Origin: Alphaproteobacteria bacterium
GTDB lineage: Bacteria; Pseudomonadota; Alphaproteobacteria; Caulobacterales; Parvularculaceae
Reading direction: 5' to 3'
Length of the DNA: 39,769 nucleotides
Assembly: GCA_016125425.1 (NCBI GenBank)
Contig: WGLT01000006.1
Coordinates: 1 to 39,769 of the forward strand
Position numbers and translations under genes: made by a program
Notes under the pieces: model-generated
Database searches by the model: none
Told to the model about the DNA's origin: nothing
The model's input: only the letters and a program-made list of their open reading frames with translations
Shown here: positions 6,389 through 11,946 of the stretch, in pieces
Layout of the letters: each line of letters opens with the position of its first letter
Position numbering within the stretch: the first letter of the stretch is position 1

Positions 6389-7522
6389 TCACGCGTTCGC
6401 CGCTTTTGGCGTGCGCTCGGCTCCGAGATAGTCGGCCGAGCGCATTTCGAGAAGGCGCGAGACCGTGCGCCCGAAATCGACCGCGCCGTCGCCGGCAGGG
6501 TAAAGATCCGCCGGCTCTCCGTCCGCAGAACAGACGAGTTTCGTGCGCGTGTCGTAAAGCGCGTCGATCAGATTGATGAAGCGTCGCGCCGCGTCGCGCA
6601 TGTCGGGGCTCATGCGCGGGATTCGGTCGATGAAGATCGCGCCATACCGGCGCGCGATCGCGAGATAGTCCGCCGCGCCGAGCGGCTTTTGGCAAAGGTC
6701 GCGGAAATGGAAGCGCGCCGCGTCGCGCGCGACGCGGGGAATGATCAGCATGCGCCCCTGCACGTAAAGTTTTTCCTCACGCTCGCGCGCGCCGCAAATA
6801 AGCTGCGCCCAGGCGTCGTCCATCGCTTCGTCGGCGTCCGGGCCGAGCGGGCGATAATAGACCGGCGCGCCGGTGAGCCTTGCGAGGCGGTAATCGCGGG
6901 CGGCTTCCAGCTCAAGAACGTCCAGCCGGCTTTTCAGCATGTCGATAAAGGGCAGGAAGAGCTGGCGGTTGATGCCGTCCCAATAGAGCTCGTCGGGCGG
7001 ACGGTTCGACGTCGCGACGACAACGAGCCCGCGCGCGAACAGCGCATCGAAGAGGCGGCCGAGAATCATCGCGTCGGCGATGTCGCGGACCTGAAATTCG
7101 TCGAGGCAGAGCAGTTTTGTCTCGTCGGTGATCTCGAAGGCGACGGGCGGCATCGGATCGTCGATGGATTTTGGGTTGGTGCCCGGGGCCCGCTTTCGCT
7201 TGCGCGCATCGAGCGCGCGAAATCGGGCGATGCGTTCATGCGTCTCGGCCATGAATTCATGGAAATGGACGCGCCGCTTCGCGCGCGCGGCGGAATTGTT
7301 AAAGAAGATATCCATCAGCAGCGACTTGCCGCGTCCGACTTCGCCCCAGAGATAAACGCCTCTCGGCGCGGGCTGCGGGCCGGCGAACAGACGAAAGCGG
7401 CGCGCGCGCGCAAGCGCGTCCTCGAGCGCTTGCAGGCGCTCGGCCGCCCGCTCTTGCGCAGGGTCGGGCTCGAGCGCGCCCGCCGCGACGAGCGCGCGAT
7501 ATCGGTGAAGGGGCCCCCTCAT
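6389..7522 (-). CDS. zapE: Cell division ATPase ZapE (AFG1/LACE1 family)
   Basis: P-loop ATPase that associates with the Z ring in bacteria; the mitochondrial homologue is AFG1/LACE1. The 377-aa protein shows Walker A as GEVGRGKS (residues 60-67), Walker B as LLCLDEFQVRD (D141/E142) and the sensor-like VATSNRPPDELYWDG. The family usually has GGVGRGKT in Walker A, so two substitutions are conservative variants. The ATG overlaps the aquaporin stop by 4 bp (7519-7522). In other Hyphomicrobiales zapE commonly stands near TCA-cycle genes; here it rides behind an arsenic module. Confidence 0.95.
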   Translation of the reverse strand: MRGPLHRYRALVAAGALEPDPAQERAAERLQALEDALARARRFRLFAGPQPAPRGVYLWGEVGRGKSLLMDIFFNNSAARAKRRVHFHEFMAETHERIARFRALDARKRKRAPGTNPKSIDDPMPPVAFEITDETKLLCLDEFQVRDIADAMILGRLFDALFARGLVVVATSNRPPDELYWDGINRQLFLPFIDMLKSRLDVLELEAARDYRLARLTGAPVYYRPLGPDADEAMDDAWAQLICGAREREEKLYVQGRMLIIPRVARDAARFHFRDLCQKPLGAADYLAIARRYGAIFIDRIPRMSPDMRDAARRFINLIDALYDTRTKLVCSADGEPADLYPAGDGAVDFGRTVSRLLEMRSADYLGAERTPKAANA

Positions 7523-8205
7523 TCGGCGGGTGTATAGCCTTTGGCGGGGGCTGCGAAAAGCCAGGAGGCGAGCCCTGTCGCGAGGGCGGCGGCGGCGAGC
7601 TGGGAGGCGATGAACATCGGCGCGTCGGCGGGCATGATGCCGGCGAAAGTGTCAGTCATCGTGCGCGCAATCGTGACGGCCGGGTTCGCAAAGGACGTCG
7701 ACGAGGTAAACCAGTATCCGGCCGTGATGAAGAGGCCGACGGCGTAGGCGACCGAGTCGGGCCGAAACCGCGCCGCGCCCAGGATCGTCAGAACAAGGCC
7801 GAATGTCGCCGTCGCTTCGCCGAGCGCCTGGCCAAGCCCGGCGCGCGCTTTGACGCTTTGCTCAAGCAGCGGCAAGTCGAACATCGCATGAGCGAGAAAC
7901 ACCCCGGCGACGCCGCCGATAATCTGTACGCTAACATAAAGGGCGGCTTCGGAAAGGGCGATTTCCCGGCGCAGGTGAAAGGCGAGGGTGACGGCCGGAT
8001 TGAAATGGGCGCCGGAGACGGGCCCGAACATCAGAATGAGAATGACGAGGCCCGCGCCGGTCGCAATCGTATTGCCGAGCAGCGCGATCGCCGCGTTTCC
8101 GCCGGCGAGGTTTTCGCCCATGACGCCTGAACCGACCACCACGGCGAGGAGCAGCGCAGTCCCGATAAATTCAGCCGCGAGGCGCTGGGGGCGCGAGAAA
8201 GTCAT
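7519..8205 (-). CDS. Aquaporin-family channel (MIP), arsenic-operon type
   Basis: A 228-aa membrane channel with six hydrophobic helices and both half-helix motifs: HFNPAVTLAF (N69-P-A71) and SFANPAVTIAR (N174-P-A176, R181). ATG 8205 overlaps the arsC stop as ATGA; a longer open frame upstream lies inside arsC and is not coding. Position directly after arsC matches the known AqpS arrangement of Sinorhizobium meliloti, where arsenate entering the cell is reduced by ArsC and arsenite leaves downhill through the channel. The function as an arsenite conduit is inferred from context. Confidence 0.93.
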   Translation of the reverse strand: MTFSRPQRLAAEFIGTALLLAVVVGSGVMGENLAGGNAAIALLGNTIATGAGLVILILMFGPVSGAHFNPAVTLAFHLRREIALSEAALYVSVQIIGGVAGVFLAHAMFDLPLLEQSVKARAGLGQALGEATATFGLVLTILGAARFRPDSVAYAVGLFITAGYWFTSSTSFANPAVTIARTMTDTFAGIMPADAPMFIASQLAAAALATGLASWLFAAPAKGYTPAE

Positions 8206-8645
8206 GCCGCTTCGCTTTCGAGAAACGCGTCTATCCGGCTGCGGATGGACTGAAAAACGTCTTCGAAAGCCGCGCGCTTTTCGGCGTCGTCGCCCCGAAC
8301 GGCGGCCGGATCGGGAAAGCTCCAGTGCAGTTTTCGAATCGGCCGGCCGGGGCGCGCCGGAAAAACAGGGCATATCTCGCCGGCCGCGTTGTCGCAGACG
8401 GTGACGACGACGTCGAGTTGCGGCGCGTCGGCGCCGGCGAATTCGTCCCAGCTCTTCGAGCGCGGCGCGCGCGCCTCGATCCCGTGGCTGGCGAGCGTCG
8501 CAAGCGCCAGGGGGTTTGGCCGTCCGGTCGGGTGAGAGCCCGCCGAGAAAGCGCGCCAGCGTCCTGCGCCGGCGGCGTTCATATAAGCCTCCGCCATGAT
8601 CGAGCGCGCCGAATTGCCGGTGCACAGGAAGAGGATGGTCTTCAC
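8202..8645 (-). CDS. arsC: Arsenate reductase ArsC, low-molecular-weight phosphatase fold
   Basis: Reduces arsenate to arsenite in the cytoplasm. The phosphatase-type active-site loop is CTGNSARS (C8 and R14, CX5R) at the N-terminus, and the redox cysteines C84 and C92 appear in VCDNAAGEICPVFP. The chosen start is GTG 8645, which forms a GTGA overlap with the upstream stop and places the C-loop at the expected distance; an in-frame ATG at 8678 would lie inside the upstream gene. At 147 aa the length fits the thioredoxin-fold-independent ArsC class. It is operonic with the ArsR fusion and the aquaporin. Confidence 0.95.
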   Translation of the reverse strand: MKTILFLCTGNSARSIMAEAYMNAAGAGRWRAFSAGSHPTGRPNPLALATLASHGIEARAPRSKSWDEFAGADAPQLDVVVTVCDNAAGEICPVFPARPGRPIRKLHWSFPDPAAVRGDDAEKRAAFEDVFQSIRSRIDAFLESEAA

Positions 8646-9817
8646 GACGCCTTCTCCTTGATGACATAGGGGCCGCACAGGCGCGGATCGCCCTGGCAGC
8701 AGTCGGCCATCAGAAAGTCCACCAGTTCCCGAATGCCGGCGTAATCGGCGACATAGATCACGCGCCGGCCCTCCTTGCGCGACAGGACGAGCCCGGCATT
8801 GGCGAGCTCCTTCAGGTGGAAGGAAATGGTGGAGGCGGGGGCGTCGAGGGCCTCGGCGAGCGCGCCGGCGGCGATGCCGGACGGCCCCTTGCTGATCAAG
8901 GCGCGCACGATTTTAAGCCTGCTCTCTTGCGCCAGCGCCGAAAACCGCCCGACCGCATCCATTATTTCCATAATTTTGGAATTATAGAAATGACTGGCCG
9001 GCGTCAAGCTGAACTTCAGCCAAGCAAAGAGCCGCCAGGCCGCCAGAATCAGCACCCCCGCAAGGATAAGCCGCAGCAAGCGCTCCGGCGCGAGAGGGGC
9101 CAGCATGCTGGCGATGGTGATGCCGGGCAGCAAGCCGAGCAGCAAGGAGAAAAGGAGCGTGAAATCGATATCCCCGATCGCCCAATGGCCGACGCCGGCG
9201 ACCAGGGTCAGCGGCACGGCGTGGGCGATGTCCGAACCGACGAGCCGGACCAGCGGCTGGCGCGGGTAAAGCGCGAGAAGCGCGGTCATGCCCAAAGCCC
9301 CGGCTCCGACGGAAGAAACGGTGACAAGGACGCCGAGCGCCGCGCCGGTCGCGATGGTGAGATTGCGCGTCGCTCCGTCCGCCGGCGTTTGCCGCGTCGC
9401 GGTCCGGCTCGCAACGGCTCGCAGCAAGGTCTGGCGGAAGATCAGCGAGAGCGCGGTGAGGACGAGCGCAATTCCCAGCATTTTCGAAATCACGAGCCCG
9501 CTCTTTTCGCTTTCGACGCCGAGCGAGCGCAGAACCAAAAGCGTCAGCGCGGCGGCAGGCGCGCTTCCCGTCGCAAGCCGCGCGACGATCCGCCAGTCAA
9601 TCGTGCGATTGAACGCGTGCACGCCGGATCCGCCAGCCTTGGTCGCGCAAGCGTAGAAAAGGCCGGTGCCGACGGCGGTCGCCGGATGAACGCCGAAAAG
9701 CAAAATGAGCAATGGCGTCATCAGCGAGCCGCCGCCCGCGCCGGTCAGGCCGACGAGAAATCCGACGCCGAATCCCGACGCGACATAAGCGATATCCGCC
9801 GTATGCAGAATGTCCAT
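8642..9817 (-). CDS. TSUP (TauE/SafE) permease fused in frame to ArsR-family regulator
   Basis: One continuous 391-aa frame. Residues 1 to about 280 are a TSUP permease: the two internal repeat signatures are FLVGLTGAGGGSLMTPLL near the N-terminus and VLVTVSSVGAGALGMTALLA in the middle, with about eight hydrophobic segments. Residues 283-391 are a complete ArsR winged helix, with LAQESRLKIVRAL, the recognition region APASTISFHLKELANAGLV, and a C-terminal DCCQGDPRLCG (C373, C374, C381) that resembles arsenite-binding cysteine sets. ATG 9817 follows GGGAACAG. A second start at ATG 8971 would give a soluble 109-aa ArsR, and a promoter-like sequence lies just upstream of it. Either this is a true membrane-tethered regulator or permease and regulator merged by stop loss. 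It leads the arsC-aquaporin unit. Confidence 0.88.
   Translation of the reverse strand: MDILHTADIAYVASGFGVGFLVGLTGAGGGSLMTPLLILLFGVHPATAVGTGLFYACATKAGGSGVHAFNRTIDWRIVARLATGSAPAAALTLLVLRSLGVESEKSGLVISKMLGIALVLTALSLIFRQTLLRAVASRTATRQTPADGATRNLTIATGAALGVLVTVSSVGAGALGMTALLALYPRQPLVRLVGSDIAHAVPLTLVAGVGHWAIGDIDFTLLFSLLLGLLPGITIASMLAPLAPERLLRLILAGVLILAAWRLFAWLKFSLTPASHFYNSKIMEIMDAVGRFSALAQESRLKIVRALISKGPSGIAAGALAEALDAPASTISFHLKELANAGLVLSRKEGRRVIYVADYAGIRELVDFLMADCCQGDPRLCGPYVIKEKAS
8970..9007 (-). promoter_or_regulatory. Promoter and palindromic operator for arsR, inside the fusion frame
   Basis: On the minus strand TTGACG (9002-9007) is followed after 15 bp by TATAAT (8981-8986). The -10 overlaps a perfect inverted repeat ATAATT-N4-AATTAT (8970-8985), which touches the internal arsR ATG at 8971. 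The stretch is strikingly AT-rich inside very GC-rich coding sequence. ArsR proteins typically bind such dyads over their own promoter. The 15-bp spacer is shorter than the 17-bp optimum. Confidence 0.65.
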
Positions 9818-10125
9818 AGACTGTTCCCGTGATCGGCGCAGTTCGACGATGGGCGGATGCAAGCAGCCGCGCGATGATATCGCACGGCGTCGAGCGCCTT
9901 CAGGCGCGCTGAATTCTTTGGAGTCCGCCGTGCGCTTGCGCTCGCCGAAACGCCGTGCGCCGGCATCCGTGATGACTTTCGCCGACCTCGAGAATGCGGG
10001 CGTTCATCTGCGCCGAAAGACCGGCTTAGCGCAAGCGGCCGGCGGGGCCGGCCGGCTTTTGGCGGCGCCGGAGGCCCGCGCGCCCGCCCGCCCGGACGCC
10101 GGCTCCGGGAAAGAGCGCGCTGGCG
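9818..10125. other. 308-bp gene-free stretch upstream of the permease-ArsR gene
   Basis: No credible ORF. It holds the 9-mer CGCCGTGCG twice (9926-9934 and 9951-9959) and once inverted (CGCACGGCG, 9881-9889), plus a 7-bp GC hairpin at 10037-10053. The leader and any promoter of the 9817 gene must lie here, but I see no clear -35/-10 pair. Confidence 0.5.
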
Positions 10126-11946
10126 TTACGCCGCCTGCTTTTGCTCGGCGATCCAGTCCTTCACGTTCTTCTCCATGATGTCGAGCGGCATGCCGCCATT
10201 CAGGAGAATGAGTTCGTGAAACTTTCGAAGGTCGAATTTGTCGCCGAGCGCGGCTTCGGCTTCGGCGCGCGCCCTGAGAATGGCGAGCTGGCCCGTCTTA
10301 TAGGCGCAGGCTTGTCCGGGCATAACGACATAGCGCTCGATTTCGCGCGTGACCTCCGCCTCGGTCATGCCGGTTTTTTCGACCATGTAGGCGATCGCCT
10401 GCTCGCGCGACCAGTGTTTGGCGTGCATGCCGGTGTCGACGACGAGGCGCACCGAGCGGAACATCTCGGCCTGAAGGCGCCCGAGATCGCCGAGCGGATC
10501 GTTCTTGTAAAGTCCCATATCGGTCGCCGCGATGCGCTCGGCGTAAAGCGCCCAGCCTTCGGCGAAGGCCGAAAACGGAAAGACCTTGCGGAACACGGGC
10601 ACGCCTTTGATCAATTGCGCCGCCGAGAGCTGGAAGTGATGGCCGGGCACGCCCTCGTGATAAAAGAGCGTCGGCAGGGTCCAGCGCGGATTGTCCGCGG
10701 TGTCTTTGAGGTTGATGTAGAACCGGCCGGGCCGCGAACCGTCGAGCGCGGGCTGATTGTAGTATCCGCCGGGCGAGGAGTCCTGCGCATAGACCGGCAC
10801 CCGCACGATTTCGAGCTCCTGCTTCGGCATGGTGATGAAGTATTTCGGCGCTTCGGCCATCACGCCTTTGTTCAGCTCGTTGAGATAGTCGAGCATTTGC
10901 TGGCGGCCTTCATCCGTATTCGGAAATTGCTGTGCGGGATCCTTCATGAGCTGATCGACGCGCTCAGCGACCGTGCCTTCCGTATAGCCTTGCGCTCTCA
11001 AAATGGCGTCCATTTCGTTTTCGATGCGCGCGACTTCCGACAGCCCGATCTGATGGATCTCCTCAGGCGTCAGATCAGTCGTGGTGAATGAGCGCAGCGC
11101 TTCGGCGTAAATCTTGTCGCCGTCCGGTATGCGCCAGATGCCGGCGTCATGGGTCGCGGTTTTCCGCATATCTTCAAAAAGCGCGATCATCGCCTGATAG
11201 GATGGGATAACCTGGCTCGCCACGGCCTCTTTCGCCTGGGCAAGATAGGCGGCCTGTTTGTCTTCGCTGAGCCCGATCTTCTGCAACTTTGCGGGAAGCG
11301 TCGTGACGAGCGGATTCTTGTCCGCGCCGCCTTCGATGAAGGCGTTCAGAACGCCGAGGGTCTTGTCGATGATGAAATCCGGCGGCGTGACTCCGTTGGC
11401 GCGGTCATCTTCAACCCGCGCCCTGAGCTCGCGCATCACGCGCCCGAACTCGTTGAGGCGCGAGATGTAGCGTTTCACGCTCTTCTCGTTCTTTATGAGA
11501 TGCGTGTCCGTCAGAAACTGCGGCATGGAGACATTGGGCGCGAACAGCTGATTGACGCGGTAGCCGCTGTGTTCGAACTCGGATTGGCGAATCTGGTCGT
11601 CATAGAACCAGACCATGATTTCGTAAGTGAGCAGTTCCTGGCCTTTGAGGTTTTTCGGACCATATTTGTCGAGCTGAGCGCGATCCTTCTTCAGGAGCGC
11701 GAGCATTTTGTCATCATGCTCCTTGGTGTAGGAGTCGAGCTTGCCGCTGTGAAAATCGAGCGGCGTATTGTCGATGAATCCGAGCTGGGTCAGCAGCTCA
11801 GGCGACTCAAGCGCGAACTCGATCGTCTGCTTGTTGACGAGATTGTTGATGCCGACCGGCGTCGCCCAGAACCAGAAATAGGCGCCGACAATCGCCGCGA
11901 TAAGGAGGCCGATAAGCCCGAGAAAGATCCTGCCAAGGATGCGCAT
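10126..11946 (-). CDS. DUF885-family putative metallopeptidase, membrane-anchored
   Basis: A 606-aa protein with an N-terminal signal anchor (residues about 5-30, FLGLIGLLIAAIVGAYFWFW), so the body is probably periplasmic. The DUF885 zinc-site motif is HEGVPGHHFQ (H430, E431, H436/H437), followed by FAEGWALYAERIA, which supplies the third-ligand glutamate region typical of these proteins. PGGYYNQPA and PGQACAYKTGQ are further family signatures. DUF885 members are predicted peptidases by motif; few are characterised. It stands alone on its strand, 308 bp from the permease-ArsR gene, and is not clearly operonic with it. Confidence 0.9.
   Translation of the reverse strand: MRILGRIFLGLIGLLIAAIVGAYFWFWATPVGINNLVNKQTIEFALESPELLTQLGFIDNTPLDFHSGKLDSYTKEHDDKMLALLKKDRAQLDKYGPKNLKGQELLTYEIMVWFYDDQIRQSEFEHSGYRVNQLFAPNVSMPQFLTDTHLIKNEKSVKRYISRLNEFGRVMRELRARVEDDRANGVTPPDFIIDKTLGVLNAFIEGGADKNPLVTTLPAKLQKIGLSEDKQAAYLAQAKEAVASQVIPSYQAMIALFEDMRKTATHDAGIWRIPDGDKIYAEALRSFTTTDLTPEEIHQIGLSEVARIENEMDAILRAQGYTEGTVAERVDQLMKDPAQQFPNTDEGRQQMLDYLNELNKGVMAEAPKYFITMPKQELEIVRVPVYAQDSSPGGYYNQPALDGSRPGRFYINLKDTADNPRWTLPTLFYHEGVPGHHFQLSAAQLIKGVPVFRKVFPFSAFAEGWALYAERIAATDMGLYKNDPLGDLGRLQAEMFRSVRLVVDTGMHAKHWSREQAIAYMVEKTGMTEAEVTREIERYVVMPGQACAYKTGQLAILRARAEAEAALGDKFDLRKFHELILLNGGMPLDIMEKNVKDWIAEQKQAA

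What the first reader, a model, noticed from the sequence alone, without database searches (positions are those of the whole stretch)
8642..9817. A TSUP permease and an ArsR regulator joined in one reading frame
A complete TauE/SafE-type permease runs without a stop into a complete arsenic-type ArsR with the C-terminal CC-x6-C set. ArsR proteins are normally soluble, single-domain and about 100 aa. A membrane-tethered ArsR would couple a transported anion or its own transport state to promoter binding at the membrane. The alternative is a recent stop loss between two neighbouring genes. The permease part looks complete, which makes either reading possible.
Basis: partly seen in the sequence, partly recalled or inferred. 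Interest (0 to 1): 0.72.

Follow-up and report, generated by a model that had tools for sequence, protein, structure and literature searches.

The report
Permease gene running into arsR
In one environmental bacterium a permease gene has no stop codon and reads straight into the arsenic regulator gene behind it, but the joint looks like the regulator's own promoter, so this is most likely a one-off gene joining and not a new kind of membrane-bound sensor.

Summary
In detail: on the minus strand one stop-free frame (ATG 9817 to stop 8642, 391 aa) encodes a complete TauE/SafE permease (residues 12-262) and a complete ArsR (283-391, CC-x6-C). The interpretation mostly does not. Of 46 permease relatives whose ends I read, 38 end at the position of residue 264-268 and 8 at 282-284; none has an ArsR in its fetched locus. 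All 29 ArsR relatives read have an ATG at the place of M283 and give 106-125 aa from it. The linker is DNA that resembles the arsR promoter/operator of relatives (26 in the matrix; L035 shows none by eye): TTGAC box and an AT-rich dyad over the ATG, the only high-scoring place in the window. A same-genus genome has the same locus with an unrelated gene in the permease's place. Best reading: a permease gene next to a standard arsR-arsC-aquaporin operon lost its stop in this lineage; soluble ArsR is probably still made from its own start. A selected membrane-tethered ArsR is not excluded but has no support beyond the open frame; an error in this single assembly cannot be excluded.

The parts
8642..9817 (-). 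joined open reading frame, 391 aa (P0001)
   Evidence: no internal stop
9020..9817 (-). TauE/SafE (TSUP) permease part, residues 1-266; Pfam match 12-262
8972..9019 (-). linker residues 267-282; DNA like the arsR promoter/operator of relatives
   Evidence: G+C of 8966-9013 is 39.6%
9002..9007 (-). TTGACG, -35-like box at the place of the TTGAC-like box of most aligned relatives
   Evidence: rows, read by eye; the generic promoter scan called nothing here
8981..8986 (-). TATAAT, -10-like box (spacing 15)
   Evidence: sequence, read by eye
8964..8991 (.). imperfect 28-bp dyad, candidate ArsR operator overlapping the arsR start codon
   Evidence: dyads of varying quality in the 26 relatives
8642..8971 (-). 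arsR proper, 109 aa from the ATG that aligns with an ATG in 29 of 29 relatives read; C-terminal CC-x6-C
8202..8654 (-). arsC, low-molecular-weight phosphatase-type arsenate reductase; overlaps the end of arsR
   Evidence: best NCBIfam match arsenate reductase, below its curated cut-off (79.5 vs 174.3 bits)
7519..8190 (-). MIP channel (aqpS-like aquaglyceroporin by context)
6389..7522 (-). AFG1-type ATPase, neighbour of the operon in several relatives
10126..11946 (-). DUF885 protein upstream; also upstream of arsR in same-genus genome G002

Best explanation
A TSUP permease gene, without a close counterpart in the 36 same-family genomes, sits directly in front of a standard arsR-arsC-aquaporin operon and has lost its stop codon (small deletion or indel), so that its frame runs through the arsR promoter/operator into arsR. 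The working regulator is most likely still the soluble 109-aa ArsR, made from its own promoter and ATG inside the joined frame; it binds the dyad over its start codon and is released by arsenite through C373/C374/C381. Ribosomes that translate the permease would in addition make some permease-ArsR chain, as a side product. Shown: the open frame, separate state of the relatives read, likeness of the linker to their promoter/operator, a different gene in the same place in a same-genus genome. Inferred: promoter activity, leaderless start, operator binding, arsenite release, existence of the joined protein, acquisition of the permease from outside.
For: 46 of 46 permease relatives read stop at query position 264-268 (38) or 282-284 (8); no ArsR-like match (tblastn E<=1e-3) in any of these 46 loci; nearest relatives in an unsupported FastTree tree are short-tailed. 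29 of 29 ArsR relatives read have an ATG at M283 and give 106-125 aa. A matrix from 26 of these upstream regions has its best score of the window, both strands, at 8966-9013: 36.3, next place elsewhere -1.1. 11 of 29 relatives have no in-frame stop in the 18 codons before the ATG, so an open promoter frame is common. Same-strand arsC behind arsR in 21 of 29, MIP in 15 of 29 loci with short flanks. G002, same genus: DUF885, opposite-strand gene, arsR operon, no permease. In one search the best permease-part match among the 36 same-genus and same-family genomes is E 4.2e-15 at 36% (G030); at E<=1e-30 the permease is in 5 of 398 genomes of the order, own included, the other four in other families.
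Against: The window's promoter score is at the low end of the relatives' leave-one-out range (17.5-63.9; 2 of 26 lower), so decay is possible. The matrix was scored against a G+C-rich background, which favours any AT-rich site, and includes ATGGAA columns; without these the exact register scores 23.9, behind two overlapping registers of the same place (31.5, 30.4; next place 7.9). The generic sigma-70 scan found no promoter in 7400-10300 (a 15-base spacing is outside its rule). L035 shows no such promoter by eye. For the 11 relatives with an open upstream frame the start at this ATG is inferred from alignment only. Several relatives are incomplete genomes. No expression data.
Confidence: 0.68

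Rival explanations
1. Assembly or sequencing error: the permease really ends at its usual place and the two genes are separate; the consensus of this single assembly lost the stop.
For: Only one genome shows the joint. Stop codons lie in other frames close to the usual permease end, so a slip of frame is enough to open or close it.
Against: By eye, several long conserved frames of the window are unbroken (names not tested), so the consensus looks good. A stop in some other frame within a few codons is expected by chance fairly often (not computed). Reads were not available.
Confidence: 0.17
2. A selected membrane-tethered ArsR: the permease anchors the repressor, and substrate or transport state alters DNA binding at the membrane.
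For: Both domains are complete; the ArsR part is modelled with block pLDDT of 96-98 over residues 291-360 behind the last permease helix; ArsR-ArsC, Acr3-ArsC and AqpS-ArsC fusions are on record (passages of PMC6205960). The arginines at 128-151 are compatible with a cytoplasmic C-terminus if the permease has eight helices (inference).
Against: No second case in any search run; the linker looks like promoter DNA; arsR start codon and dyad retained; permease part only weakly to moderately modelled (whole chain mean pLDDT 71.1, pTM 0.40); no ArsR-type operator upstream of the permease.
Confidence: 0.1

Closest known systems
arsR-arsC-aqpS operons (Sinorhizobium meliloti type)
   Same: arsR, arsenate reductase and aquaglyceroporin in one row; the review passage says AqpS may be the arsenite exit (PMC6205960 and PMC4435449, passages)
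   Different: a TSUP permease frame leads into arsR and an AFG1 gene follows; the exact gene order of the Sinorhizobium operon was not compared
Fusions inside ars operons: ArsR-ArsC, Acr3-ArsC, AqpS-ArsC
   Same: an ars gene joined in frame to a neighbour (PMC6205960, passages)
   Different: the word TSUP does not occur in that paper's main text; here the promoter of the downstream gene appears to be kept inside the joint
CgArsR (PDB 6j05)
   Same: best solved-structure match of the ArsR part, E 1.3e-17 (chain name from the table is 'Transcriptional regulator ArsR', CgArsR identity recalled)
   Different: CgArsR takes the As(III) cysteines from two chains (passages of PMC11212059); here a C-terminal CC-x6-C set, nearer in kind to AfArsR, whose three cysteines lie in one short stretch
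TSUP / TauE-SafE permeases
   Same: full Pfam TauE domain
   Different: the 46 relatives read end at or soon after the last helix

Membership tests
ArsR/SmtB family regulator | winged-helix ArsR domain over curated cut-off | tested here: met
   (HTH_20 42.5 vs 27; HTH_5 28.8 vs 22; HTH_metalloreg 65.8 vs 55)
ArsR/SmtB family regulator | cysteine set that could bind As(III) | tested here: met
   CC-x6-C read; binding itself not tested
ArsR/SmtB family regulator | small stand-alone protein of about 100 aa | tested here: inconclusive
   own ATG kept, 109 aa possible, but the frame is open to the permease start
ArsR/SmtB family regulator | binds a dyad at its own promoter | not testable with these tools
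   a dyad is present at 8964-8991; binding needs an experiment
TSUP (TauE/SafE) permease | full-length TauE domain | tested here: met
   profile 2-236 of 237
TSUP (TauE/SafE) permease | transport of sulfur-type anions | not testable with these tools
   no substrate evidence; neighbours looked at in two relatives only
ars operon | arsR followed by arsC and an arsenite exit protein | tested here: met
   domain matches and order; function not tested; arsC below the NCBIfam equivalog cut-off
selected one-component membrane regulator | joined architecture conserved in more than one lineage | tested here: not met
   found in the own genome only

The most novel reading that the evidence does not exclude
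A dual-product locus: soluble ArsR binds an operator that lies inside the coding frame of a permease-ArsR protein, so it represses its own operon and also blocks transcription of the membrane form; arsenite lifts both, and the membrane form then titrates or tethers operator DNA at the membrane.
Probability: 0.08. Interest if true: 0.7.

Novelty: new variant of a known kind. Interest (0 to 1): 0.2.

Why it matters
As found, it is mainly a caution: an open frame across two complete domains can run over an old promoter that happens to lack stops. If a membrane form were made and used, it would be the first TSUP-ArsR regulator known to me (recalled). Paper searches for TSUP with ArsR and fusion, TSUP with ars operon and ArsR with sulfite exporter and fusion protein returned no papers; those returned papers whose listings name no such case and which I did not open.

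Tried and rejected
A natural long C-terminal tail of the permease as source of the linker: 8 of 46 relatives have an 18-21 residue tail, but the window's tail aligns to these no better than shuffled tails (107-313 of 500 shuffles reach the score) and the tree (FastTree, midpoint root, no support looked at) puts the window among short-tailed relatives. Rejected.

ArsR operator upstream of the permease gene: none found; the only high-scoring place of the window is the joint.

AlphaFold model: ArsR part confident, permease part weak, so no fold search was run. No solved structure related to the permease by sequence (3 KdpC matches, best E 0.31).

One search printed minus-strand loci in the wrong orientation and was not used; one search replaces it. 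In the promoter matrix I left out 3 of the 29 ArsR loci (L035, L037, L038) by eye as most distant; L035 has no such promoter by eye, the other two have AT-rich stretches. The 29 ArsR loci are those fetched (30 asked for, own genome included), not all matches. The 46 permeases are the loci fetched; of the 64 other-genome permease matches, only those with loci were read, and the unread ones end at residue 274 or before. Alignment A1 holds 69 rows: P0001, 39 of 45 usable permeases (6 near-duplicates left out) and 29 ArsR.

Papers: listings only (12 papers; 1; 3; 6; 8; 8 of 13 shown); passages in PMC5840216 (TSUP background), PMC11212059, PMC4435449 and PMC6205960. No paper was read whole.

Full report
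What is there. On the minus strand, 9817 to 8642 is one open frame of 391 codons. Pfam finds a nearly full TauE/SafE domain at residues 12-262 and an ArsR-type winged helix at 295-346; NCBIfam agrees on ArsR. The C-terminus holds C373, C374 and C381. Behind it, same strand, come arsC (8654-8202), a MIP channel (8190-7519) and an AFG1-type ATPase (7522-6389); before it a DUF885 protein (11946-10126).

Where it comes from. The window is contig 30 of a 2.87-Mb genome in 31 contigs, 96.9% complete.

ArsR relatives. In 61 genomes (own, 8 same genus, 28 same family, 24 same order), 59 have some match to the joined protein. I read the 29 ArsR loci fetched: each has an ATG at the place of M283 and gives 106-125 aa from it. 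In 11 of 29 the frame is open for at least 18 codons further upstream, so there the start is inferred from the alignment. Same-strand arsC follows in 21 of 29 and MIP in 15 of 29, with flanks of about 1.5 kb or less. In L031, L050, L072 and L075 a VOC-type gene (named by eye, no family search) lies between arsR and arsC; the window has none there.

The joint looks like a promoter. Upstream of the relatives' ATG lies in most a TTGAC-like box and an AT-rich, more or less dyadic stretch that overlaps the start codon; L035 has none by eye. A matrix from 26 of the 29 (L035, L037, L038 left out by eye) has its best score in the 39.8-kb window, both strands, at 8966-9013: 36.3, next place elsewhere -1.1. 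Part of this comes from the ATGGAA columns and from the G+C-rich background; with columns -42 to -1 only, the place still holds the best scores (31.5, 30.4 and 23.9 in overlapping registers; next place 7.9). The window's score is low among the relatives (leave-one-out 17.5-63.9; 2 of 26 lower), and a generic promoter scan calls nothing here. The stretch is 39.6% G+C between coding parts of 65-66%. The short distance from TATAAT to the ATG suggests a leaderless start (inference).

Permease relatives. I read the ends of 46 relatives fetched from the order, class and phylum samples and from the GTDB scan. 38 stop at the position of residue 264-268, 8 at 282-284; no ArsR-like sequence (tblastn E<=1e-3) lies in any of the 46 loci, most of about 3.8 kb. 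In the phylum sample 65 of 397 other genomes match the joined protein at E<=1e-35 (64 by the permease, G009 by ArsR); three matches reach past residue 283, all with stops inside, and all three were read (L076, L082, L093). The 8 longer tails belong to another clade and resemble the window's linker no more than shuffles do. At E<=1e-30 the permease is in 5 of 398 genomes of the order, own included, and the four others are of other families; in the 36 same-genus and same-family genomes the best permease-part match is E 4.2e-15 at 36% identity. The nearest relatives are 59-63% identical over the aligned part and lie in other proteobacterial MAGs and same-class genomes. Acquisition from outside the family is the simplest account (inference).

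Same place in a relative. In G002 of the same genus, DUF885 (78% identical over 227 residues) is followed by an unrelated gene on the other strand (-827 to -126 from the arsR ATG) and then arsR (53% identical), a VOC-type gene, arsC, MIP and, by eye and blastn, AFG1, without a permease.

How chance could do it. 11 of 29 relatives have no in-frame stop in the 18 codons before the arsR ATG, and two have more than 100 open codons there (L014, L023). A permease gene that ends just in front of such a promoter and loses its stop in the matching frame would give what is seen. Whether the loss is real or a consensus error cannot be told without reads; stops in other frames lie near the usual permease end.

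Function. Most likely ArsR works as ArsR proteins do: dimer on the dyad at 8964-8991, released by arsenite bound to the C-terminal cysteines (inference). The joined protein may be made in addition. The model of the joined protein is confident for ArsR only. Hydropathy and charges allow a cytoplasmic C-terminus, so a joined ArsR would not be on the wrong side, but nothing shows that it acts.

Known background. Fusions among ars proteins (ArsR-ArsC, Acr3-ArsC, AqpS-ArsC) are on record (PMC6205960, passages; the word TSUP does not occur in its main text). A survey of transporters in 685 ars operons names ArsY, ArsB, ArsP, MFS, MIP and 20 others; the words fused, fusion and sulfite do not occur in its main text (PMC4435449; I did not search it for TSUP). 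Searches for TSUP with ArsR and fusion, TSUP with ars operon, and ArsR with sulfite exporter and fusion protein returned nothing; those returned papers that I saw as listings only. The library lacks most subscription papers.

Verdict. Real open frame, most likely a private joining of two genes over a retained arsR start. Low interest unless a membrane form is shown.

Noticed in passing
L031, L050, L072, L075: Relatives carry a VOC-type gene (named by eye) between arsR and arsC; the window lacks it.
   Followed up: partly
L050:2782-3378: In a relative the arsR frame is open about 105 codons upstream of the aligned ATG (L014, same place), so a mechanical caller gives a 198-aa ArsR; the same hazard as in the window.
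   Followed up: yes
L076-L083 (8 loci): A clade of TSUP permeases with an extra 18-21 residue C-terminal tail.
   Followed up: partly
L045-L048, L061, L062: TSUP relatives whose stop is followed directly by a conserved gene (RAWQRMLSGRRLDL...), a possible functional neighbour.
   Followed up: no
L001 (G000:C10:261082-264216): Another ArsR-type domain of the same genome inside a 362-codon open frame.
   Followed up: no
L072, -827 to -126 from the arsR ATG: An unrelated opposite-strand gene occupies the place of the permease in a same-genus genome.
   Followed up: partly
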